NCBI GenBank assembly: GCA_963969395.1
Contig: OZ017802.1
Coordinates: forward strand, 8,620,501-8,684,500
Direction: 5' to 3'
Source of the DNA: Pseudoscleropodium purum
Taxonomy: Eukaryota; Streptophyta; Bryopsida; Hypnales; Brachytheciaceae
Length of the DNA: 64,000 nt
In this document: positions 1 through 34,936 of the stretch, piece by piece
Numbering within the stretch: position 1 is the stretch's first letter
Layout of the letters: each line of letters starts with the position of its first letter
Program-made: the position numbers and the translations under genes
The notes under the pieces: model-generated
Told to the model about the DNA's origin: nothing
What the model saw: the letters and a program-made list of their open reading frames with translations, nothing else
Database searches by the model: none

Positions 1-1968
1 CTTCCCCCAATGTTGATAATTTTGAAATTTGTACGGCGCTTGATCAAGAGGAAGATTCCAACGATTGTACTCGTGGCCTGGAGGCATAGCTTCCAAGATA
101 CCAAACATTTTGTAGAACCTAGCACTCAATGGACTACGACACTTGGCACACACCAAACGAATGAGTGATGCTTTCACAATGCAAGTGACATGGAAAGTGT
201 GGCGACATTGGCCCATGGTTACCGCACCTTCCGGTCCAAAGAAGACTTGGCAAAGGCTACAACAACCATCCAAGATTGGAGAGGCTGGATCACAAGCATG
301 CACCACTCGCTTGTCTTTCACATTGATGTGTGCTGAAAGTGTGTTGTAAGGGACCCATCCTTCCTCTACTTCCAAGGCCCAATTGATGGGTGGAGCTTGG
401 TCCTTCTTTGTGTGGTTTAACCGCTCAAACATAGCATCCATGTCTCCCCAACATGTGATCTCCGTATATCCCTTTGAAGGATGTTGGTCAAACATAGTCT
501 TGAACCAGCTCAAAGAGTTTTGAATGGCATCGCAATTTTCATTCGACTCCATTGCCAATGTTTGAAGACCTACCATTGCTCGAGATACTATAGAGGGTCT
601 GTCTTGGAGTCTTTGTACCCATGCTAACCATCAAGACTCCAAGCCGCTAGATGGCATAAACTTCTTCAAATCCAAGGACAATTGCAATCGATTCAACTTG
701 GATTCAATGATTCCTTTTGCTTCAATTGCCTCCTTCAATTTATGCTTCAACTCTTTAAAGTCACAACTCTCCGTTTGCGTCTCCGCATTCACGTAAACGG
801 ATGAAAGCTTTTCCATTGATGGTTGTTGTGTCGCTTTTAACATGCTCATGTCGTGACTTTTTTGTACATTCACAATGGCAGGATTGTCGCTTGCTTTGGC
901 CTTATCAAAAGGAAGAAAGAGCTTATCTTCACTCTCTTGAGTCTCTTGACTGTCTCCGAGTACAATCACTGGTGAGATTGCAACCTCACTTGGATTTTTG
1001 GAGGTCCCTTGCAATTCTGCAATCCGTTTACGCATCTTCATCAACTCTTCTATTTGCCTCGATGATTGTTGATTTAAATGTTCAATCTCACTCTTCGAAG
1101 TCTTTAATTTCAACTCCAATACTTTGCACCTTGCTTCCACTCCTTCATGGTCAGCAATTTTCTTCTCATATTCCACCAATTGTAGTATGTGAAAATCTCT
1201 TTCTTTGAAAAGTGGTTCGAAAGTCTTCGTGAGATTCTGAAATGCTATAGCACCTTTCAACATCTCTGGTGCTATTAAAGAAAACTCCTTGGCCAAATTC
1301 ATAAAAGTCGGAGCAGCTTGCGCTAAAAATTCAGCTGACATCGTTATCTTGAAAGCTGTGTCAAGTATATGTGCAACATCCTTTGGATTTGCAAGTGGAC
1401 TCATTAGAACAGTAGTAGCACCATCATTGGGGTTTGACGATCTGCCTATTTCTTCATGAAGGTTAGCAAATTGAACCGAGAGCTTCAAAAGATTTTCCAA
1501 TTGTTTTGGATTGGACATGTCTTGCAAGGTTCGATGTAGAGGACTTGGCAATGCCGCTGTAATTGGAAACTCCTCCGCCCGCCTTTTACGCTCGGAACTC
1601 CATAATGACGATATATTATCAATCGTCACGTCTTGTCCACGAGGCGTATGTACTTTGTCTTCTAAACTTAACGCTGGACTAGATTCAACGCCTTGATGCA
1701 TAGGCGGAGATTTGTAGACCAAACTATCAAAACAATTGTTGGCTATCAGACTATCAATTGTAGCATTAGCCTTTGCCACTTTCTCCGCCAAGACTTCGTC
1801 TACTTTACTTTTTGAAGTTTCCCCGCGTTCCGTGCAAACCTTGCCTTTGTTTACAAACTCCGTTTGCGTTTGTGCCGCAACATTTGGTGTAAAGGTCAAA
1901 CGCGTTGGAGCTATGGAAAAGACTTCACCCTCCTGCGCCTCTACATCTTTCTCCACATCTTTCCCCAC
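1..1968 (-). pseudogene. Gene A1, C-terminal part: coiled-coil and RING-finger protein, interrupted by one TGA, open at window edge
   Basis: Read on the minus strand, an open frame runs from 1968 to 634. It meets a single TGA at 631-633 and stays open in the same frame to base 1, so the gene continues outside the window. The first 445 codons carry heptad-like, Lys/Glu-rich stretches (about residues 253-315 and 400-435) typical of coiled coils. Beyond the TGA, 139-261 encode a complete RING finger. RING fingers usually recruit E2 enzymes for ubiquitin ligation, so a ubiquitin-ligase role is a family-based inference. The frame opens at a GTG inside the 3' end of the upstream ORF (1941-2597) and has no convincing start of its own, so it probably belongs to the same gene, separated by a frameshift or an unrecognised intron. 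The TGA may be a nonsense mutation, a sequence error or a read-through site. Codon use and absence of other stops suggest recent or ongoing constraint. Confidence 0.6.
139..261 (-). other. RING finger domain of gene A1
   Basis: The minus-strand translation gives the spacing C-x2-C-x14-C-x-H-x2-H-x2-C-x10-C-x2-C, with the eight ligands encoded at 259-261, 250-252, 205-207, 199-201, 190-192, 181-183, 148-150 and 139-141. This matches the canonical RING consensus with His at positions four and five (RING-H2). A block after it, including ARFYKMFG and MPPGHEYNRW, looks conserved rather than random but I cannot assign it to a named domain. All ligands are intact even though the domain lies downstream of the in-frame TGA. 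Confidence 0.85.
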
Positions 1969-2597
1969 ATTTTTCGAAGAGCTTTATTGATTGCTTTTGT
2001 TGGAGATTGTACAGACCGTAATTCTTCAACATTTGAGGCTTTCTCCACACCATCCGTTTTCACCTCAATAGTATTTTTTAATACTTTTTCTGTTTCTCCC
2101 TCTGAATTGTACAAGTCGGGAATGTCCTTTTGATTGGCTTCAAGTAGAAGTGGGCAAGCTGTTGTCGTCGGAAACGTGCTCCAATCGATCTTGCGCTCTA
2201 ATATAAGTTCCGCATAAACCATACACGCCACGCTATAATTAATATAGCCTTTACTTCTGCGCTTGTTTCCGAATAGAACACGCCACACCTCCTCAGATCG
2301 ATGGACAAAATGTTTGTTGTTGCAAGTCCATGGTTTACAACAAAAATCCCGTGTATGATTCCTATGTGACTCCTGAGGCCACAACTTGTCAATGTGGTAC
2401 ATTTTAACATAGGTCCTGCACATTTTTGATGTCCAATATTCCGCATCTTCATCTTCCCACTCGCTCTCTGCTTTAATTGTAGGGTCATTTAAAATGTCAA
2501 GCCGAAGGTCGTGCGTAGCCCCCTTTACTTTGCTTTTTTTCTTCACTTCGCTTCCCGGAGTCACCCCATCCATATTTCGATCACCTTCGCCGTTCAT
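1941..2597 (-). CDS. Gene A1, N-terminal part: protein with unrecognised Cys/His domain (218 aa)
   Basis: The first true ATG is at 2597-2595; a longer reading would need a TTG at 2606. The product starts with a Lys-rich segment. A Cys/His block follows at about residues 55-139, with C60, H68, H81, C92 and H96 and the string YVKMYHIDKLWP. It is clearly related to the block in gene A2 at 6172-6420: both share MC, YVKM-HI-KLWP-E, TC-x3-HF, a V-RVL motif, NY and AE-x-x-L, then an acidic D-W end. The pattern suggests a zinc-binding domain but I know no family name for it. The ORF ends at a TAG at 1941-1943 and overlaps the next frame (1-1968) by 28 bases through a shift near an AAAAA run, so both parts probably come from one gene. 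A TATA-like site lies about 214 bases upstream. Confidence 0.6.
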   Translation of the reverse strand: MNGEGDRNMDGVTPGSEVKKKSKVKGATHDLRLDILNDPTIKAESEWEDEDAEYWTSKMCRTYVKMYHIDKLWPQESHRNHTRDFCCKPWTCNNKHFVHRSEEVWRVLFGNKRRSKGYINYSVACMVYAELILERKIDWSTFPTTTACPLLLEANQKDIPDLYNSEGETEKVLKNTIEVKTDGVEKASNVEELRSVQSPTKAINKALRKMWGKMWRKM

Positions 2598-2810
2598 GAT
2601 TGTCAATTGGATTCAATAACCAATTGAAGTGAATAAAAAAATCTCACGTGATAGTCAAAAGTGATGGCATCAATCGCAACACAGTAACACAAGATAGAGG
2701 ACCCCAACTCTCCACCCCGTAGGAGCAACTAGCGCATAAAGCAATAGTAGCACATCCAACTTGGCACCGAAGGAGAATTGAAGTGAGAAGAAATGAAAAG
2801 TCACTCCACC

Positions 2811-2816
2811 CTTATA
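2811..2816 (-). promoter_or_regulatory. TATA-like box of gene A1
   Basis: The minus strand reads GGCTATAAGGGTGG directly at the gene-side edge of the GC-rich block. The TATAAG core is about 214 bases before the ATG at 2597, matching the spacing of AT-rich TATA-like sites before genes A2 and K. Confidence 0.45.
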
Positions 2817-2817
2817 G

Positions 2818-3098
2818 CCGTCCGCCACCGGACCTGCCCCGGACCGCGCGAAGCGGCCCCGAACCTCGCGTCCGCCACGCGGACCGACGACGTCCGCTTC
2901 GGCAGCGGACGCGCCGTCCGACCACCCGTCCGACCGCCCTGACTGACCGCCCCAATCGACCACCCCGTCCGACCGCCCGTCCGACCGGCACGTCTGCCCG
3001 GACTGTCCACACTGTCCGCCTTCCGACGTCGTCCGCGCTTTGGACACGTCGACCGCCCCACTTAAACACTGACCGCCGACGGCATCCGCCCAACTGTC
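2818..3098. repeat. GC-rich GTCCGCCC repeat block 1, upstream of gene A1
   Basis: About 280 bases packed with short degenerate units (CCGTCCGACC, GACCGCCC, CGTCCGCC) stand out sharply from AT-rich flanks. The ORFs predicted across it on both strands are compositional artefacts. It sits immediately upstream of the A1 TATA-like box. Similar blocks occur at 5537-5848, 7903-8152 and 10243-10412. Role as promoter-proximal control DNA or a methylation-prone CpG cluster is inference. Confidence 0.75.
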
Positions 3099-3226
3099 AA
3101 TTGGTGCATCCTATGAGGCCATTATTATTCAAAAAGAGCGGTAACATTTCAAAAATAAAACAGCCTAATAATCACTGCTAAATGAAGATCAATGTAATTG
3201 GTTTGTCATTTTTTTTTTTCTAAATG

Positions 3227-3240
3227 TAAACCCTAAACCT
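3227..3240 (-). promoter_or_regulatory. Telo-box-like motif upstream of GC block 1
   Basis: The minus strand reads AGGTTTAGGGTTTA about 130 bases outside GC block 1. The identical 14-base string lies on the plus strand directly before GC block 2 (5519-5532). Telo boxes (AAACCCTAA) are known plant promoter elements. Shared position relative to two related genes supports an inherited promoter, but function is inferred. Confidence 0.4.
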
Positions 3241-5013
3241 TATACCCTAATTACCCTAAATCTTTTCTTTTCTCCCCTAAATTGTTTTACGAATGAGGGG
3301 AATGTGGTTAAGTTGAATATGTTTGAATTAGTTACTGATATTATTCCTCTAAATAGGTTTTGAGAAGATCTGAAGATGGTGGGGATTTTTTTAAAGTTCA
3401 TTAGGAAATCAAATGTTTTGCAAAAATAATCAATTCCATTTTCATTGTAAGCAAATGAAATTTTAAAAAAAGGCCCCAATACATAATTAGAATAACAGTT
3501 AAATGGATTTCAACCTCATGATATTTAATGAAAGGTTGTGATTTCTCATTAAAAGTGCATCACGATCTTCAAATGAACATTGAGTCTTTCATATTTCTTA
3601 ATGAAATTTTGATTAGATTTGAAAACAAAGAAAAAGAAACAATGTTTTAACTTTCAAATCATGTATGGCTATACTTTTTCTTAAAAATATAGAAAAATTC
3701 GTTACTTGAGTTGGTGGAGTAGAATACATTATACATGTGCTATATTTATTTTGAAGGGTAATTCCAATATTCTTATTTCAGATGTTTTTAAATATTAATT
3801 TTAAAAAAGAGGGTTCATTGTTTAAAGATCTAAAAAATTGACAAATATAATTTCTATTATAAATAGGAATTGAATTCGGAATTCGATTTTTGAAATGATT
3901 CAAATGAACAAGATATTGATTATAAAATATTTCTTTGTTTGAGTTTTCAAAATGAATTCACGAAACAATTGCAAACTTTTGAACTTAGGTATATGGTATT
4001 GTTTTTGGTTTGTACTTTGTAGAGTATAATATTTCCATTTTAATCCTAAATAAATGAAAAAATTCCACATGAATGAAATGTTTCTATGTATTGCACAAAG
4101 ATTTCTACCAATTATTATGATAATTAAATACATTGTTACATTTTATAAAATATTCTACATAGAAAAAAAAAATCATTTCAATTTTCAATCATGATAAACG
4201 ATGTCTTCTACTCTTTCTGTTATATGTTCGTTTTGTATAACGTGTACATTATACAATCTTTGAGAGCAAGGTAGTTCATTTTTGGCTCTCATTGAAATAG
4301 AAAATATATTTGTGTTTGGATTTTGAAATCATTATGTATTCTACGGTCTTGCAAGAATGCATCTTGTTTCTTCCTTTGAATCCTTTTGATATTTTCTTTT
4401 TTTTCCTTTTTTTTCTGTCTCGTAGGGCTCTTATTATCTTGTTCTCTTCATTTGACCAGCCTATTTGGCTTGGCTCTTAGTTTTTTTTTTTTTTTTAATG
4501 TAATGGTTTATGCATATGTTATCAAAAATATATATTATTTATCTAAAATTAATATATTGATGAACAAACGCATAAAGGCATTGAATGCTTTCACATTGAA
4601 AGTTATAAATCTATCATAAATCACTCTTGCAAATTTGAATGATTGAATCGAAAATTTGAAAATGTAATTACAAGAGCTTTCAATTCAATCAATTGCATAA
4701 ATCATAAATGTTGAAATGCAACTCGTATAAGTTTAGCATCTATGAAGATTAATTCATGTCATCCACATGCAATTTTCCAATTTAATAAAATGCAATTGAG
4801 TACTTCAATTTTTTTCTTTTCAATTCTCTAAGTAACATTCACTTCATATCTTTCTCTATTTGTTTATCTATTTTTTGGCAACAAATGGAGAAACCATCTT
4901 TGTCTATATTTGCACATGCACTCTTATTTGATTGATGAAGAATAGATCTATGAAATATATAATCATTGATTTGTTCATGTTGATTTATCTAATATATTTT
5001 ATGTATGTATATA

Positions 5014-5017
<4 letters not shown>

Positions 5018-5062
<45 letters not shown>
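5018..5062. repeat. (TA)n microsatellite
   Basis: Uninterrupted alternating TA of about 45 bases in AT-rich intergenic DNA. Confidence 0.95.
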
Positions 5063-5064
<2 letters not shown>

Positions 5065-5518
5065 TTAAACGAGTATGAAAGACAAGATTGACAGATTGTG
5101 TTTGAATGTTGTTGATTTTGAAATGATTTAGTATTATATCATTTATAAGAATATTATAATAGTGTTATGTTATAATATTCCTAAAACAATTGCAACAAAT
5201 ATTAAAATACATGCTAAGTTAGGTTTGTTAGCCTATCAATTGTTCATTAATAGACATAATTGAGTAGCCCCCTTAAATGAAACATTCAATATCTAATATC
5301 TTACAATCCAAATGGTGGATTTGTCTAAAAATTTTTCCACATTTTTTCCAACTAATTTACTACAAGATGCTACGGTTACATATGCCCCAAAGTATTTTTC
5401 TTTTAAGACTTGATATTTGCACTACTATTGGCAGTTTTGAAGTGTTTTTAATGAAAAAAACTTTACAGGTTAAACATCTCTACCGTGAGATTTTGAAAAA
5501 AGAACAATTTCCTTCATT

Positions 5519-5532
5519 AGGTTTAGGGTTTA
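5519..5532 (+). promoter_or_regulatory. Telo-box-like motif before GC block 2
   Basis: AGGTTTAGGGTTTA lies immediately upstream of the GC-rich block of gene A2 and matches the motif beyond block 1 in the same orientation relative to its gene. Confidence 0.4.
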
Positions 5533-5536
5533 AGAT

Positions 5537-5788
5537 GAGCCGTCCGCCTTGTCCACCCCGTCCGCCCCGATACCCATCCGCCCTGTCCACCCCGTCCGCC
5601 ATGTTCGCCCGATCCGGAGTCCGCCGTGTCTGGCCTGACCGCCCCGTCCGCCCCGTCCTCCATCCGCCCAGTCCGCCCGATCCCGCGTCCGCCCCGACCG
5701 CCCCGATACCCGTCCGCCCCAGTACGGCCGTCCGATTGACACGCGGACTGATGTGGTCCGCATGATCTGGACGTCCGCCTCGGGGCGT

Positions 5789-5826
<38 letters not shown>

Positions 5827-5848
5827 GGAGGCGGACGGCTCATTCCGA
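5537..5848. repeat. GC-rich GTCCGCCC repeat block 2, upstream of gene A2
   Basis: About 310 bases of degenerate 9-10-base units (CCGTCCGCCC, CCCGATACC, TGTCCACCC) are interrupted by a (TA)n tract at 5792-5824. The gene-side end reads GAGGCGGACGGCT, which shares GGCGGACGGCT with the end of block 1. No credible protein is encoded; ORFs across it on both strands reflect base composition. Confidence 0.75.
5792..5824 (+). promoter_or_regulatory. (TA)n tract at the TATA position of gene A2
   Basis: An alternating AT run inside the GC-rich block ends 222 bases before the A2 ATG at 6046. Genes A1 and K have TATA-like sites at about 214 and 216 bases, so this tract may serve as, or have expanded from, a TATA box. 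Confidence 0.35.
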
Positions 5849-6028
5849 ACAATCATTCTCTTTGGAGTGGGCGGACCAGTGCATTGGAAGCTCTGCGCGC
5901 CCCTTCCGCTTTGAGTGAATGATTGTTGTGAGATTGTTACAAATTTTCACAAAGTTCACGCTTGTAAAATTTTAATTAATTAGTAAATAAAAATTTTGGT
6001 TCTTAAGCTTTCTAATTGTTTCATTCTC

Positions 6029-6038
6029 TTTGCTTCAG
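6029..6038 (+). promoter_or_regulatory. Possible 3' splice site in the A2 leader
   Basis: CTCTTTGCTTCAG ending at 6038, preceded by a pyrimidine-rich stretch and a branch-like TCTAAT, has the form of a plant intron acceptor seven bases before the ATG. If used, the A2 leader contains an intron. I cannot fix a matching donor. Confidence 0.3.
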
Positions 6039-6045
6039 TTTCATC

Positions 6046-7308
6046 ATGCCGAAAGATAGAACACCCAAAAAAAGTAGTCGAAAGGGAAGACCCCAATTGT
6101 TCGATTGGGATGCTTGGGCCGATCCATTGTGCGTGGGTGAACCGGGATGGGAAGAAGAACCAACAAGAGTGTGGGATTGCTCAATGTGCAAGAAGTATGT
6201 AAAAATGACTCACATTCAAAAACTTTGGCCACGTGAACGTGTAGAGCACCAAGCGCCACGTTGGGAAGGACAAATGTCTACGTGCCAAAGTGAGCACTTC
6301 AAACAACGATACACACAAGTGCATCGAGTTCTTGGCATTAAAAGTGCCAAACCAAATATAATGAATTATAATGTTATGGCAATGGTTTGGGCAGAGATTG
6401 TACTCCACAAGGACGTGGACTGACGTACTGCTACAATTCGCAATGTAGAGAACTATACGCGCACGGATGCCGTTATAGATACACAGTGGAGGGGCACAAG
6501 CGATTGCATGCCAGAGTGGTCTAATCGATGTTATCTACAACAACCTTCAGTTGTTCTACGAGATGCTGAAGATGCGTGGACAGATGACGATGATGACGAT
6601 GATATGCAAGCGCCTGTCACATTTGGAGTTAGACATGAGCGGGTAGAAGAACGAGAACGAATTGAATTCGAGCAACAAATGCAAGAGGCAACACGCAGAA
6701 GCCTTCAAGATCGTGGACAGCAAGATAGGCATGGTGGGTCCTATGAACATGAACATGGAACGCGAGAATCTGAACATGGAAGAGGTGGTTCATACTCTGG
6801 TTACGATCCTCAAAATAGATATGAAGGTGGAAGAGGGAGCTATGGATCCACGCATTATGGTGGTTCAAGTGCAGTTGGTTCTCGTTATGGCACTCCCTCT
6901 GAAATTGGCTCTCTAGGTGGGACAAGTAGCTATGGCAATACGCACTATGGAAGGTCTACTGAATCTGGTTCATATTATACGACGCCCACTCAAGTGGGCT
7001 CCGAAGGTAGTGGAGGAAGCCATGTAACCCCACAGTATAGTTGTTCTCTTCACGGAAGCGCCCAATACTATCCGGGATCAACTAGAAGTGATTCATACGG
7101 GCATCATGGGGCCTCTTATTACAGGGCTTCAAATGAAAGAGGATCAGAGCCTACTACTCCGGTTCCTGCTCCCACTTTTGGAGGTTCAAATTATGGACAA
7201 GGAGGTGCACCGAGTGGATATCACGGAAACTACGGAGGTGGTCCGTTCATTGGAGTACAAAGAAGAGGCAGCGGTCAACAATTTGAGGCCGATTCAGATT
7301 CCGAATAA
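6046..7308 (+). pseudogene. Gene A2: Cys/His-domain protein with Gly/Ser/Tyr-rich tail, interrupted by one TGA
   Basis: The frame starts at ATG 6046 (MPKDRTPKKS, basic), runs 125 codons, meets TGA at 6421-6423, and continues in the same frame for 294 codons to TAA at 7306-7308. Residues 43-125 hold the same unrecognised Cys/His block as gene A1, with C45, C48, H56, H68, C80, H84 and the YVKMTHIQKLWP string. The TGA falls exactly where A1 has the W of its D-W pair. After it come an acidic run (seven Asp in a row), a short Glu/Arg helix, and about 190 residues rich in Gly, Ser, Tyr and His (GSYGSTHYGG, SSYGNTHYGR). Such SYG-rich tails are typical of condensate-forming or RNA-binding proteins; that role is inferred. 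The region after the stop keeps a strong coding bias, so the stop is recent, an error or read through. Confidence 0.6.
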
Positions 7309-7902
7309 AAAAACATGCAAGTATATAGTGAGCATGTGTTTGTTCGATTTTCTCATTTTTACTCTCACGACAAGTATAGAGCACTAGATTGGTAGAAGTA
7401 GTACAAAATTTTAAATGAATAGAACAATTTTGAACAACAATTTTGTTCACTTTTTCAAAAAGTGTTGTGTAATAGTGTACACCAAGTATGTATGTAGGCA
7501 AGCATATTGTTGAAGACATCATTGTATTATTTTATAATAGCGTTGATGTATACGGCTATAAGCGACTTTGATAAATAATAAAAATAAGAAGAAGAAATGT
7601 AATTTTGTAAGAGCCATATTATGTCTATTTTTGAATTTAACATTCGAGGTTAAATATGTACTAGCATGGTGTGTATTTTGAAATTATTGTTGTGTGTTTA
7701 TTACATTTAGAAACTCGTAAATGATATAAATGTATTTCTAATTAATTTATGAAAGATTAAATTATTTGAATATTTGAAATTTTTTTATTTTTCATTCAAC
7801 GATTGCTAAAAACTAAAATGATTTCTTATTCGTATGAAGAAATGCCCAAATTAGACAATTAGTGGTTCTTCTTTAGATTCTATTTTCAAATATGAAAAAT
7901 AA
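7309..7902. other. Intergenic DNA between genes A2 and K
   Basis: This AT-rich stretch of about 590 bases probably holds the A2 3' UTR. An AATAA-rich stretch near 7575-7590 could serve polyadenylation. I see no ORF worth reporting and no structured element. Confidence 0.5.
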
Positions 7903-8152
7903 ATCGGATCGGGCGGACGCTTGATTTGTTCGCCCGTGCCCGTCCGATGGGGCGGACGGGCCGTCTGACGCGACCTGTCGGATCGGGCGGACGCCAGATT
8001 TGTCCGCCCGTGGCCGTCCAATCGGGCGGACGCGGCTGTAGGATTTCGGGGAGGCGGACGGCCGATGCGTCCGCCACCCCCGGCCCGTCCGATCGGGCGG
8101 ACGGTTTGGGGCCGTCTGCGCCCCAATAAAATGGGCAAATGGGCCGTCCGCA
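7903..8152. repeat. GC-rich GGGCGGACG repeat block 3, upstream of gene K
   Basis: The block contains direct repeats of a longer unit. GATCGGGCGGACGC begins at 7907 and again at 7981 (period 74), with about 50 bases of clear similarity, and a third partial start is at 8091. The words are the same as in blocks 1 and 2, with both GTCCGCCC and GGGCGGAC orientations present, so it could also fold. The ORFs crossing it are compositional. Confidence 0.75.
8125..8131 (+). promoter_or_regulatory. TATA-like site of gene K
   Basis: CCCCAATAAAATGGGC at the gene-side end of block 3 offers an AT-rich core about 216 bases before the ATG at 8347, in line with genes A1 and A2. It is a weak match to TATA but the position agrees. 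Confidence 0.3.
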
Positions 8153-8346
8153 TTGTCACTTTTGCTTTGCCCCTTGTGAATGCAAGGTGGAGCGGAGAGC
8201 TTGGTGGTTCATCCTCCATTGGCTCCTTTCCGAGGCAAGGCAAGAGTGGTTTATTGGGGCCCCCTTGTTGCCAATTTTTTAAACACTTGCGCGTGAATTC
8301 AATTTCAAATTAAAAAATTTGATCTATATCAATTTCATTTGTCACG

Positions 8347-9840
8347 ATGCCGAAGGGGAAGAAGAAGGTTGCGAAGCTTAAACATGGAGAGGGACCATCG
8401 AACTTGGAAGTAGCTCGCCAAAGTCCTTCGGAAGAATGCAAGAAATTCATGATTGAGCGCATCGTTCAATTTTATGAATCGGAAACAACATTGTCTTTAG
8501 ACAATAAGTACATCAGATATCAAGAGGAGTGCGTATCTAAATTCAAGGTAGACATGACACAAATGTTGTTGGATGCATTGAATGTGGCGAAGTGGCATGA
8601 CGAAATGCATAAAACGTACTTCACCAAATGTTTGGAGAACAAGGTTCATAATGCTTTGTGGAATTCCAAAGTCATTTTGATTAAATATGGCAAGGAATAT
8701 CGACCCAATGACGCCCAGTTTGAAGAAGTGATTCTGAAAGCGGACTTGTTTAGAGGGCGATGTGCTCCATTCGCCAAAAAACACAATCGAGTTGGTTCAA
8801 TTGGTTGGTGGAAAAGCAATGATGGAGTTGCTAAAGCGGAAAGGACCAAACGGCACCTCATAGCACTTCCAGATATAGCACGTGTGATTGCTATTGATGA
8901 TAGAACGATGAGAGGTGGATATGCAACGATTCGAAAGGTTCGTCTTGAAGGATGTCCAGGAATACTTCCTTATTGGGAGTTTGCGGCAAAGAAATCCATT
9001 CACCACCAAACTCGACCTGATCTTGCAAAGTTAGAACATCAAAACGAATCAATGGCTGTTTGAATTTCACACGCGGGTGTGATACGGTTTGCTGCAGTGC
9101 ACGGAACGACGTGTGAAGGTTATGCGTATTGGTGGAATGGTGGAACTCTTCGACAAATGTTGAATATGGATAAGGACTATCCAGACAACATTCAAATATG
9201 TTTGATGTATACAAATCCAACCGAAGAGGAGGTTGTAAAAGCTCACCATTTAGGACGATATCGGAAGAAGCGCACGGAGTTGACATGGGCGTTTATGCAT
9301 ATAATGTATGCAGTGCATCTTGCTGGACATTTGCACAATGATCTTTCTCCGGACAACATTTTGTTGCATTTTCCAGAAGATGAGTCACGTGTGTATATTG
9401 GAGTTTGCGATTGGGGCATGACCACCTTAGCTTCTCAACCAATGAAGTCTTTGTACACATTCACATCAGCAGATGAGATGAAACAAACTTTGCAGAGGAG
9501 ATGGTGGGTGGATCCACGTATTGCATATTTGCATAAAGCAGGTGCAGATGTGGAAGTCATTCCGATGTATTCACGTAAGTCGGAAGAGTATGCCGTTCGA
9601 AAAATTGCTCGGCGGATGAATGGAAACAACATGTTAGAGGCGTATTTCAACGTGCTACGAAAAACACCTAGTGCGACACAATTTGCCTTTCATGACTTTG
9701 CAAAAGTGTTTTATGCTTACTTGAAGCGCATTTCTTCGAAGCTTGACGATGAAAATACTAGTTTGGCCCATGTGATTACGCAATTTTCTAATACATATCA
9801 TTGGCTGATGCCAGATGAACATTTCCGCCATTTATATTAG
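8347..9840 (+). pseudogene. Gene K: protein kinase with DWG motif, interrupted by one TGA
   Basis: ATG 8347 (MPKGKKKVAK) opens 238 codons that end at TGA 9061-9063. The same frame then continues without a stop to TAG 9838-9840. Residues 1-180 form a helical-looking N-terminal region I do not recognise. A kinase domain follows: glycine-rich loop near RGGYATIRKV (residues 189-198), the VAIK-type lysine in FAAKK (K215), then the TGA between the N-lobe lysine and the hinge. After it come TTCEGYAYWWNGG, the catalytic loop HNDLSPDN (Asp at 9340-9342, Asn four residues on) and CDWG at 9406-9417, where the metal-binding Asp is kept but Phe is replaced by Trp. The usual alpha-C glutamate is not obvious. 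A full-length product would be expected to phosphorylate Ser/Thr or Tyr, but the TGA would remove the catalytic loop. The basic MPK start resembles that of A2. Confidence 0.7.
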
Positions 9841-10242
9841 ATTGGTAGTGCAGAAGTAGTAGTTGAATACTTGAATAGGTTATATAGGCATTAAAAATTA
9901 GTTTAGAAATATAGAGTTGGAATGAAAAAAATTATATGTGCAATTAGCCAAATGTGCACAATGTATGGTATTCTACATTAAATTGAATACATTTTGCCCA
10001 TATTGATTATGTTTGTATTTGTCTTGATCTTGATTTTTTAAATAGTATATATATATATTTGAAGTCACAAATTTTTTTAGTTTGCCTTTTGAAAATGAAT
10101 TGGAATTTTTTCATACTTTCAAGACTATCATGGACTCATGGTCAAACTTTATAATCTTTCAACTTATGAGAGACATTGTTTTAATAACAAATTGCGAACC
10201 ATTGCACTTCATTTAACATTTAATTGTTTAAAGATTAAGGGA
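9841..10242. other. Intergenic DNA after gene K
   Basis: AT-rich sequence, presumably beginning with the K 3' UTR. I see no ORF and no repeat of note. Confidence 0.5.
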
Positions 10243-10412
10243 GTGACCGCAGGGCAGTTTGGGTAGGGCGGTTGGGAGAAATAGGGCCGTCTTGGCGGAC
10301 GGGGCGGATGGGGCGGTCCCGGCGGACACTGCGTCCGCCGAGACCGCGAATGTCAGCGGACGCTGCGGACACAGCGTCCACGTCCGGACGTCGTGTCAAC
10401 CCTGCTGTGCAC
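10243..10412. repeat. GC-rich repeat block 4, without an adjacent gene
   Basis: Words such as GGCGGACGGGGCGGATGGGG and GCGTCCGCCGAGACC match the blocks upstream of genes A1, A2 and K. No ORF starts about 200 bases away on either side, so this is either a remnant of a lost gene copy or a boundary of the cluster. A telo-box-like stretch on the minus strand lies near 10487-10508. Confidence 0.65.
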
Positions 10413-10640
10413 AACTATTATTATTTTGGATGGTCACATCATGTCATAATATGCCAACATTCAGTCAAAATTCTATCAGATTCTTAACAATCCTAATCCT
10501 AAACTTTAAATCTTTTAGGACTTTATTTCACTATTTTTTGACAATTATAGATGGAAAATCAAAAGTATCATTATTATTTATCATATTAGTATAATTTATA
10601 TTTCTCTTTCTAATTATTTAATGATATTCCATTCAATGTA

Positions 10641-32494: not shown

Positions 32495-34936
32495 CTGCGC
32501 CACATCCATCCATCCATGCATGCCAATTGATCAGGCCCACATGCAACGTGATCAATCCCATGTCTCGTAACCGACAGACAGTATATGCGCCTAAACCCCC
32601 CAAGTACACACGTTGACACTCCACAGCTCACGACTCTAACTAATTGGAGCTTTAGCAATCCTCGGTTATACATGCAAAATCAAATCAACGCATGGAGAGT
32701 GTTATGCTCCAAACACTGGAATTGACTCCACTCAAGCGTGCCAGAGATGCATCGTAGGTAACGCACCGAAATTTGACATTAATGAACGAAGGTCCCGAGC
32801 GTGGGAAACGGACGGCAGCCATGGCGATTCCATGTGCGCACATGAGCACTAATGTTGAGGTTTGAAAAAGGTCAATGCCAGTACAAATCCATGTGGTCAC
32901 GTGAGAGAGGGAGGTACCTGTAGTCTTTGCTGGTGAGGCCCGAGGTGCCGGTCGCGGAGGACAGACCCGGCAGCTGGAACTGGCCGGACGAGGCCGCCGG
33001 GGACGATCCGCCGGACAAGGCCCCAGAGCCGCCCGGGCTGTTGTAGCCCATGCCCCCGCCGCCCAAGTTGGTAGTGGATTGCGAGTTCCCCCCGGACAGA
33101 ATGGACGGCCGCAGGTTGCTGTGCGTCAGGCTGGAGCCTGGCGTGGGCGTGGACGTCCGGGATGCGCCGACGGCAATGGCGGGTTGCGGCCCAGAAGACG
33201 TCGCGGACCCCGACTGAGACGCCGACGACGTCTGACCTTCCGCGGGCCTGCGGGAGCGGTGACGCCCGCGGTGCATGTGGCGCTCGCAATACTTCTGATC
33301 GGGGACCACGTCACGAGCGCAGCGCCACTTCTTCCCGTCGGTTCGCCGGCAACGGCCGGGCTCGGGATCCGTGTTGTTGGCGACGCCTAAGTGAAATGCA
33401 CCCCACCCAACTGCACGATCGACCCCAACACACAATTTATCAGAAACCTAATGTCACCATAATTGCTAACTCACTTCGGCAATTGTAATCAAAACATCAT
33501 ATCGGCACTTGATACTTCACTTCAATTACGACTAACTGGAACATATATTCTACATTTGAATGACATCGAGTTGACCAGCATGGTGAGGAAAGATGAAGGA
33601 CTTACGGTTCGTGGCATGGTGGCTGGCAAGCCCATTCATGGTGGCGACACTCTTGCGAATTGGATTCAAGAGTTCATTCGGCACGTTGACGCCGGCCATC
33701 ATGTACTTGAAAATAAGTGCTTGGTGCTCCAATTCCGCCCACTGACCAGTGGTGAAGGGAGCGCGTGCCCCGCTGACGGAATTGTGAACCGATTGACCCA
33801 TGGGGTTCATGCTTTCTCGCCCCATCGAAAGACCACCGCCTGCAGGCACACACACGCCAGCGGAAGTCAACGCCAGATGTAGGATCAACACCGACGCTCA
33901 GACTACATTTCTAGCATTGACTCCAGCAACTCAAACCCCAAGTGGCGGTAAAGGAGCACAATCAGCCGCCAGTTCGACATTATCATACCCTATAAGGTCT
34001 CACTACCGTGTTTCAGGTTTCGATCAGACACTAATATTGCAGAAGTTTGGGCAGCGCGCGTAACATGGCAATAGTCACCTAAAGCAAGCCTCTTACTCAA
34101 TGAACAACAGGAAACCAGGACGCCGACCGCAGGACGCAATGCAGTACGTGCATGTCGACAACGATCGAGGTTACGATATATTGAAACTCGAGACACATTT
34201 GTTAACGTACTCACTCACTTACTCATAACTTGAACTTCACGAAACAAACTACACCAATGTCATCTTCGCACTCGGCTGCCCACTTGACCGATCAGACGAC
34301 GAGGAATCTCGAAAGCAAACAGCTGTGGAATAATCTAGAGAAAGCTGCACTAGCTAAGACTAGTAGCAGGCCTCGGCGTCTAGGGACCCTCACATCTTGC
34401 TTAAGAACAGCAGTTCAGTTTAAGTGGGCAAGTGGCGACGACGACGCGAGGACATAATTAAAGCGAAAGTTTACTGTACCGGAAGGCTTATAGTGGTACG
34501 CGGACGACTGCAGGTGGTGGTACGAGAGCGGCCCTCTAGCGCCGCCCTGCGCTCCGGAGTACGCCGAGGCCGACACCAGCGAATCTTGTCTGAGGAGGCG
34601 CGCATCGGAGACCACATTCCCGTGGTCGTTGCCCCCCAGGAGCGAGCCGTCGCTGGCGCACGAGTTCGTCGGGGAGCAGCCCAGCCGTCCATCGCTCACC
34701 ATGCTGGAGCTCAGTACCATGGTGCCGCTGGGGCTGCCGTTCATGTGCATCTTGAGGTCGGACTGGCGGTGGAACGAGTCCGTGCGCGCCATCTTGAGCG
34801 GGCCCCCGCCGCCGCCGCCGCCTCCTCGTCGGTCCTCCAAGTCCATCTCCGAAGCTGATCTGCACTGCTTCAAACCCAGGTGATTGTTGGGTGATAGCGA
34901 CCCCGGCGAGTTGGGTGAGCTCATAGTTTGGTGCAT
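31270..34936 (-). CDS. GRF: Growth-Regulating Factor transcription factor (QLQ-WRC), four exons, 794 aa
   Basis: GRFs bind DNA through the WRC domain and pair with the co-activator GIF through the QLQ domain to promote cell proliferation in the nucleus. My model joins 34936-34480, 33839-33606, 33386-32918 and 32494-31270; every junction is GT-AG and the total is 795 codons including TAG. QLQ lies at about residues 179-217 ([20 protein letters not shown]), WRC at 237-280 ([20 protein letters not shown], with the C3H ligands intact). C-terminal family motifs follow in order: FFADDW (530-535), TQL (584-586) and GGPL (670-673). At 794 residues it is longer than typical flowering-plant GRFs, through Ser/Gly-rich linkers and an eight-Gly run. 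The start is the first ATG after an in-frame TGA. An ATG further up through an unseen 5' exon cannot be excluded. Confidence 0.93.
32918..33386 (-). CDS. GRF: GRF exon 3 (WRC domain)
   Basis: The acceptor is CACTTAG|GCGTC at 33388-33387 and the donor is TACAG|GTACC at 32917-32916. The exon carries the nuclear-localising and zinc-binding WRC block, including [14 protein letters not shown], then a Ser/Gly/Thr-rich linker. The normal miR396 target position falls at 33238-33258. Confidence 0.9.
33606..33839 (-). CDS. GRF: GRF exon 2 (QLQ domain)
   Basis: The acceptor is CCTGCAG|GC at 33841-33840 and the donor is AACC|GTAAGT at 33605-33600, both strong. The exon carries the QLQ signature Q192 with L and the downstream [10 protein letters not shown] and [10 protein letters not shown]. 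Phase 1 at both ends gives clean joins. Confidence 0.9.
34480..34936 (-). CDS. GRF: GRF exon 1
   Basis: Encodes residues 1-152 plus one base of the next codon: a Ser/Pro-rich start ([13 protein letters not shown]), a poly-Gly run encoded by a CGG-type repeat near 34803-34825, and no known domain. The donor is CCG|GTACAGT at 34479-34478. An in-frame stop at 34988-34990 closes the frame upstream. Confidence 0.8.

What the first reader, a model, noticed from the sequence alone, without database searches (positions are those of the whole stretch)
631..9063. All three cluster genes carry exactly one in-frame TGA
At 631-633, 6421-6423 and 9061-9063 a lone TGA splits an otherwise open, domain-bearing frame. 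No TAA or TAG is involved, and downstream parts keep intact RING ligands, SYG bias and kinase catalytic residues. In A2 the TGA sits exactly where A1 has TGG (Trp). Candidate explanations: CGA-to-TGA or TGG-to-TGA decay of methylated copies, assembly error, RNA-level correction, or regulated read-through.
Basis: partly seen in the sequence, partly recalled or inferred. Interest (0 to 1): 0.85.

Follow-up and report, generated by a model that had tools for sequence, protein, structure and literature searches.

The report
Decayed jumping-gene copy, not readthrough
The three interrupted genes are the cargo of one decaying copy of a very common transposon in a plant, probably a moss, and the stop codons are ordinary C-to-T mutations of the kind that sister copies carry at other places, so nothing suggests that the cell reads through them.

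Summary
The three TGAs exist, but "exactly one in-frame TGA each, nothing else" does not hold: A1 also has a private 1-base deletion (near 1986) and a TAG just left of the window. The three genes lie in one 11,677-bp DNA transposon (1,273 bases before the window to window 10404) with 10-bp CAGGGTTGAC inverted ends and 8-bp target-site duplications (7 or 8 of 8 bases matching in 10 of 13 copies). The 313-Mb genome, of a plant and probably a moss, holds 3,256 left ends. Most sister copies have CGA, TGG and CGA at the three codons, so each TGA is one C>T or G>A step. Sisters carry scattered TGA, TAG and TAA; 470 of 691 private changes in A1 are C>T/G>A, at similar rates in CG, CHG and CHH contexts. 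Post-insertion nonsense and missense changes accumulate at about the synonymous rate, so the stops look neutral. All-TGA is a 5% event given one stop per gene. Read-through, RNA correction and recoding are very unlikely; assembly error was not tested on reads. More interesting is the transposon: a transposase-less hAT relative carrying a RING protein, a related zinc-finger-like protein and a kinase, beside a sister type with a hAT transposase.

The parts
1..10404 (.). Part of the transposon that lies in the window; the element begins 1,273 bases further left (L031:8728) and is 11,677 bp in all
   Evidence: In 29 of 30 sister A1 loci the match begins between -1278 and -1271; L022 begins at -1033. 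The match ends between 10403 and 10406 in 9 of 14 right halves, at 10392 in two, at 10420 in one; L034 and L041 do not reach it. 8-bp TSD CTGGGCAC / CTGTGCAC
1..2597 (-). Gene A1: RING-finger protein, 1,132 codons in the majority frame; its last part lies left of the window, stop near -800
   Evidence: the window copy's own RING matches are below the Pfam cut-offs
631..633 (-). TGA in A1 (codon 656); 31 rows: CGA 27, TGA 2 (window and L003), CAA 1, CCA 1
1984..1988 (-). Private 1-base deletion in A1 (frameshift); exact place ambiguous within a few bases
2820..3060 (.). GC-rich CGTCCGCC-type array; the match to the transposase-bearing sister type begins here (2992 or 3001)
   Evidence: array by eye; boundary
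3001..5518 (.). AT-rich spacer shared with the sister type at 92%
5540..5790 (.). GC-rich CGTCCGCC-type array; left edge of the A2 module
6046..7308 (+). Gene A2: 420 codons, N-terminal domain shared with A1, SYG-rich tail
6421..6423 (+). TGA in A2 (codon 126); 13 sisters: TGG 9, TAG 3, TGA 1; 44 of 44 homologous proteins found have Trp
7904..8130 (.). GC-rich array; the match to the sister type resumes here (7972 or 8004)
8347..9840 (+). Kinase-like gene, 497 codons
9061..9063 (+). TGA in the kinase (codon 239); 13 sisters: CGA 12, GGA 1; Arg in 43 of 59 homologous proteins found
10395..10404 (+). Right terminal inverted repeat GTCAACCCTG
10405..10412 (+). Right copy of the 8-bp target-site duplication (7 of 8 bases match the left copy)

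Best explanation
The three genes are the cargo of one silenced, decaying copy of a high-copy DNA transposon of the hAT kind in a plant (probably moss) nuclear genome. The copy lacks a recognisable transposase of its own and was most likely moved in trans by a transposase from a sister type that shares its kinase, spacer and right end. After insertion it drifted without visible constraint. C>T changes on either strand, most likely deamination of methylated cytosine in all sequence contexts, made CGA into TGA twice and TGG into TGA once; a 1-base deletion and a TGG-to-TAG change also hit A1. Shown here: element ends, target-site duplications, number of ends, codons in sisters, C>T bias, neutrality, the sister type with a hAT transposase. 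Inferred: methylation as the cause, silencing, mobilisation in trans, moss as host.
For: Ends and TSDs: 10 of 13 copies match in 7 or 8 of 8 bases, against at most 5 of 8 in 156 mismatched pairings; CAGGGTTGAC on both sides. 3,256 left ends with up to 3 mismatches (full elements and shorter derivatives together), 0 in the reversed control. Codons at the three sites in sisters. A1, 31 rows: 470 of 691 private changes are C>T/G>A, against 64 reverse transitions; hits per available site CHH 340/1137, CG 82/276, CHG 48/172. Private C>T/G>A rates, nonsynonymous/synonymous 1.0, 1.14, 1.0 and nonsense/synonymous 1.12, 0.75, 0.98 for A1, A2, kinase. Stop censuses of scored copies: A1 35 TGA, 44 TAG, 50 TAA in 41 copies (1 without a stop); kinase 45/36/5 in 86 copies (36 without); A2 74/40/46 in 100 copies (17 without). 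The window's A1 has two further lesions. The moss P. patens methylates transposons in CG, CHG and CHH, CHH at more than twice the Arabidopsis level (PMC6453930, passages seen).
Against: No methylation, RNA or read data. The visible lesions in A2 and the kinase are single and TGA. 36 of 86 kinase copies and 17 of 100 A2 copies have no stop, so some copies may be active. C>T bias is also the usual spontaneous bias (recalled), so methylation is not proved. 3 of 13 copies show no TSD.
Confidence: 0.93

Rival explanations
1. Regulated stop-codon read-through or recoding at TGA keeps the three proteins functional.
For: Frames are open on both sides in A2 and the kinase; the three stops inside the window are TGA.
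Against: Nonsense changes accumulate at about the synonymous rate; sisters carry TAG and TAA too; the kinase TGA is in 0 of 13 sisters; A1 also has a frameshift and a TAG, which read-through of TGA cannot bypass.
Confidence: 0.01
2. Assembly or base-calling error made the TGAs.
For: Not tested on reads; high-copy repeats are prone to consensus errors.
Against: The stops fit the same C>T/G>A spectrum as hundreds of other private changes in 31 copies; 31 of 41 scored A1 copies carry at least one TGA.
Confidence: 0.03
3. RNA editing changes the stop codons in the transcript.
For: Bryophyte organelles edit RNA (recalled, no call).
Against: This is a nuclear transposon; TGG-to-TGA would need A-to-G editing while CGA-to-TGA would need U-to-C; neutral accumulation.
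Confidence: 0.01
4. A fast, RIP-like or deaminase-driven hypermutation process, not slow decay, produced the C>T changes.
For: Strong C>T/G>A bias without context preference.
Against: In the 27 A1 rows that have private changes their number is modest (10-38 per 3.6 kb) and each row has transversions too; no clustering test was run.
Confidence: 0.06
5. An immobile host gene cluster that became pseudogenes.
For: Three neighbouring genes with plant-like domains.
Against: Thousands of ends, 8-bp TSDs, and A2 (13 of 14) and kinase (14 of 14, L034 only its start) found at the expected distance from A1 in the right halves fetched.
Confidence: 0.01

Closest known systems
hAT superfamily DNA transposons (PF05699 Dimer_Tnp_hAT, PF04937 DUF659, BED finger)
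   Same: 8-bp target-site duplication, short CAGGG inverted ends, sister type with DUF659 and hAT dimerisation domains that shares spacer, kinase and right end
   Different: The window's copy has no recognised transposase; it carries a RING protein, a second protein with the same N-terminal domain and a kinase
KDZ and hAT transposons of fungi that carry a TET/JBP dioxygenase cargo gene (PMC12730594; outline, abstract and found passages seen)
   Same: DNA transposons with a cargo gene thought to help them against silencing; 8-bp TSD in Zisupton and usual in hAT
   Different: Other cargo (kinase, RING), plant host, and no transposase in this type
Ordinary decayed non-autonomous transposon copies in methylated plant DNA (general knowledge)
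   Same: C>T-driven nonsense changes, neutral decay, a short derivative with the same ends (L026)
   Different: Nothing essential as far as the stop codons go

Membership tests
hAT superfamily, non-autonomous element | 8-bp target-site duplication | tested here: met
   7 of 13 copies perfect, 3 of 13 with 7 of 8, 3 of 13 (L001, L024, L027) with 1 or 2 of 8; control of 156 mismatched pairings at most 5 of 8. KDZ elements share this feature
hAT superfamily, non-autonomous element | Short terminal inverted repeats beginning CAG/TAG (consensus recalled) | tested here: met
   CAGGGTTGAC at both ends of the window copy
hAT superfamily, non-autonomous element | Sequence shared with an element that encodes a hAT transposase | tested here: met
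   L049 and L050 share spacer (92%), kinase stretch (94-95%) and right end (83-85%) and encode DUF659 and hAT dimerisation domains; 20 of 86 scored kinase copies have a hAT hit on the opposite strand 5.46-5.93 kb upstream, controls 1 (same strand) and 0 (downstream). Left end of that type not read
hAT superfamily, autonomous element | Own transposase gene | tested here: not met
   No transposase model listed for A1, A2 or kinase of the window copy (E up to 1), nor for 17 A1-type homologues (E 0.01) and 29 of 59 kinase homologues (E 0.001); among 32 of 44 A2-type homologues one has a weak PF20700 match, E 0.081
KDZ transposons | KDZ transposase (PF18758) | not tested
   The genome search did not complete and was not repeated after the hAT result
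Stop-codon read-through gene | Conserved stop at the same codon and constraint beyond it | tested here: not met

The most novel reading that the evidence does not exclude
A two-type hAT system in moss: a transposase-plus-kinase type and a very abundant transposase-less type in which A1 and A2 take the transposase's place, with modules exchanged at GC-rich subterminal-like arrays. The kinase and the RING protein would act for the transposon, for example against host silencing or to favour trans-mobilisation, and copies with broken genes keep spreading because the proteins act in trans.
Probability: 0.35. Interest if true: 0.6.

Novelty: new variant of a known kind. Interest (0 to 1): 0.3.

Why it matters
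The stop codons themselves are ordinary and close off a tempting read-through story. The element is worth a transposon specialist's look: a high-copy hAT-type element, one abundant form of which carries a kinase and a RING protein but no recognised transposase, would be a case of cargo kept by selection on the mobile lineage (kinase, majority of the window's type against two copies of the other type: 10 synonymous and 9 nonsynonymous shared differences, ratio 0.24; small numbers) while each inserted copy decays neutrally. It also gives a record of context-blind C>T decay in a probable moss genome.

Tried and rejected
Read-through, editing and recoding were rejected on neutrality and on the mixed stop types. 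The idea that '1 TGA' in many A1 copies marked one conserved TGA was tested and rejected: the TGAs lie at scattered codons. The shared TGA at codon 656 in L003 was tested for common descent: L003 shares 2 of the window copy's 59 derived sites and is not its neighbour on the tree, so recurrence is likelier. A palindromic element of 20-odd kb, suggested by inverted identical pairs, was dropped: the single unit with its own ends and TSDs is 11.7 kb. The viral-contig scan found nothing. The solved-structure search with A2-type proteins found nothing. Paper searches for a moss hAT with kinase or RING cargo showed none among the rows listed (20 of 48, 10 of 15, 8 of 13, 0 of 0, 1 of 1, 6 of 32 and 6 of 7 rows seen; titles and abstract starts only). 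In PMC7466625 (found passages) one DNA transposon, PpTc2, is named and the word hAT does not occur. The library lacks most subscription papers.

Selection of rows: the 30 A1 loci are the best scoring of 41 scored out of 1,659 candidates, so they are biased towards unbroken frames; the same holds for the kinase and A2 censuses (86 of 1,541; 100 of 1,385). The 14 right halves were chosen by me out of those 30. L032 has no A2 and L034 only 155 bases of kinase; both were left out of the counts concerned. In one search, 12 of the 14 pairs plus the window were used; L003/L034 (right end not in the fetched stretch) and L012/L041 (only a nested end found) were dropped. In the neutrality test the near-identical pairs L014/L015 and L020/L022 contribute no private changes to A1. 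The profile work used 32 of 44 A2-type and 29 of 59 kinase homologues.
Full report
What was claimed and what is there. The three TGA codons are at the stated places. In A2 (6046-7308, plus strand) and the kinase gene (8347-9840, plus strand) the TGA is the only stop, and neither has an indel against the majority of the copies aligned. A1 (minus strand, start at 2597) is different. Its frame breaks near 1986 through a 1-base deletion that none of 30 sister copies has, and its last part, which lies left of the window in L031, has an in-frame TAG at L031:9923-9925. A1 thus has three lesions, one of them a TAG.

What the cluster is. All three genes belong to one transposon. In 29 of 30 sister A1 loci the match to the window's sequence begins between -1278 and -1271; L022 begins at -1033. 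At the right the match ends between 10403 and 10406 in 9 of 14 fetched halves, at 10392 in two and at 10420 in one; two halves do not reach that far. The window copy runs from -1272 to 10404 and is 11,677 bp long, with a 10-bp inverted repeat, CAGGGTTGAC, and an 8-bp target-site duplication. Left and right flanks agree in 8 of 8 bases in 7 of 13 copies, in 7 of 8 in three (the window copy among them: CTGGGCAC / CTGTGCAC) and in only 1 or 2 of 8 in three; 156 mismatched pairings never exceed 5 of 8. The left end occurs 3,256 times with up to 3 mismatches and never in the reversed control; this counts full elements and shorter derivatives together. The host genome has 313 Mb in 52 contigs. A WRC domain, as in plant GRF genes, lies at 32.9-33.4 kb, and two of the kinase homologues bear the name of the moss Ceratodon purpureus (another is labelled a Bacilli metagenome bin), so a moss is likely; the species is not known to me.

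The genes. A1 is a RING protein (17 of 17 homologues match RING models at E 0.01; the window copy's own matches are below the Pfam cut-offs). A2 shares A1's N-terminal domain and has no reliable Pfam match. The third is a kinase-like protein (27 of 29 homologues scanned match Pkinase at E 0.001; the window copy's own match is below the Pfam cut-off). No transposase is recognised in them apart from one weak Mutator-type match (E 0.081) in one of 32 A2-type homologues. A sister type supplies one: two fetched copies, L049 and L050, share the AT-rich spacer (92%), the kinase stretch (94-95%) and the right end (83-85%) with the window's element, lack the A2 stretch, and have where the window's element has A1 a gene with DUF659 and hAT dimerisation domains, split over two open frames in both copies (lesion or intron). 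Whether an A1 lies still further left of that gene was not read. Of 86 scored kinase copies, 20 have a hAT hit on the opposite strand 5.46 to 5.93 kb upstream (1 on the same strand and 0 downstream as controls), 11 have an A1 or A2 hit, none has both, and 55 have neither among the scored lists, which are incomplete. The edges between shared and unshared stretches fall in or beside the GC-rich CGTCCGCC arrays. I infer that this is a hAT-type family with exchangeable modules and that the window's type is moved by a transposase made elsewhere.

Where the stops come from. The three codons are CGA in 27 of 31 A1 rows (TGA in the window and L003, CAA and CCA once each), TGG in 9 of 13 A2 sisters (3 TAG, 1 TGA) and CGA in 12 of 13 kinase sisters (1 GGA). 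In homologous proteins the positions are Arg in 7 of 17 (Pro 8, Ser 1, gap 1), Trp in 44 of 44 and Arg in 43 of 59. Each TGA is therefore one C>T or G>A step. Across 31 A1 rows 470 of 691 private changes are C>T/G>A, against 64 reverse transitions, with nearly the same hits per site in CHH (340/1137), CG (82/276) and CHG (48/172). A moss, P. patens, methylates transposons in all three contexts, with CHH more than twice the Arabidopsis level (PMC6453930, found passages), which fits; methylation was not measured here.

Are the stops used? Private C>T/G>A changes are nonsynonymous and nonsense about as often as the sites allow: nonsynonymous to synonymous 1.0, 1.14 and 1.0, nonsense to synonymous 1.12, 0.75 and 0.98 for A1, A2 and kinase. 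Stops of all kinds occur: 35 TGA, 44 TAG and 50 TAA in 41 A1 copies (one without a stop), 45, 36 and 5 in 86 kinase copies (36 without), 74, 40 and 46 in 100 A2 copies (17 without). These censuses hold only the scored candidates (41 of 1,659, 86 of 1,541, 100 of 1,385), which favours copies with few lesions. With such neutrality, read-through or correction has nothing to preserve in inserted copies.

Chance. With the window copy's own numbers of C>T/G>A changes (41, 14 and 25 in the visible parts), a simulation gives one stop per gene in 2.1% of runs and one TGA per gene in 0.115%; given one each, 5.4% are all TGA. The simulation treats all derived changes as neutral, which probably overstates the expected number of stops (about 5 against 3 seen). 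Over some 1,400 copies one or two would look like this one.

Against a purely dull reading. The kinase differs between the majority sequence of the window's type and the two copies of the other type by 10 synonymous and 9 nonsynonymous shared changes, ratio 0.24, so the mobile lineage seems to be under constraint; numbers are small, and the changes private to those two copies (17 synonymous, 31 nonsynonymous) give an intermediate value. A TAA at A1 codon 57 is present in 14 of 31 rows spread over the tree, three of them with perfect target-site duplications (L010, L016, L017), which suggests that copies with this stop have transposed; a Met two codons downstream could serve as start.

Verdict. 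The finding is a correct reading of three codons with an over-read pattern. It is a decayed transposon copy. The element is a new variant of a known kind and worth a short note by itself.

Noticed in passing
A1 codon 57 in L001, L003, L005, L008, L010-L013, L016-L018, L025, L029, L030: TCA-to-TAA in 14 of 31 A1 rows, spread over the tree; the homologue P0107 begins at the Met two codons later. Copies with this stop seem to have transposed, or gene conversion spreads it.
   Followed up: partly
L014/L015 and L020/L022 (contig C46): Nearly identical inverted pairs of the element about 20 kb apart with the same stops: no private differences in A1; L014/L015 99.0% over 5,404 columns with the differences at the left end, L020/L022 3 mismatches in 5,132.
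   Followed up: partly
L026:5582-5887: A 306-bp MITE-like derivative with both ends of the element, inserted inside another copy with an 8-bp duplication GGGGAATG.
   Followed up: partly
window 2820-3060, 5540-5790, 7904-8130, 10250-10404: GC-rich CGTCCGCC-type arrays between the genes and at the ends; module boundaries between the two element types fall in or beside them.
   Followed up: partly
window 10.6-11.6k, 23.2-24.2k, 53.7-54.6k, 60.5-61.4k: Another dispersed repeat of about 0.9 kb in four direct copies, with inverted relatives near 13-14k and 20.5k.
   Followed up: no
window 32875-33435, minus strand: Open frame with a WRC domain as in plant GRF genes, inside a GC-richer stretch of 27-37 kb.
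   Followed up: no
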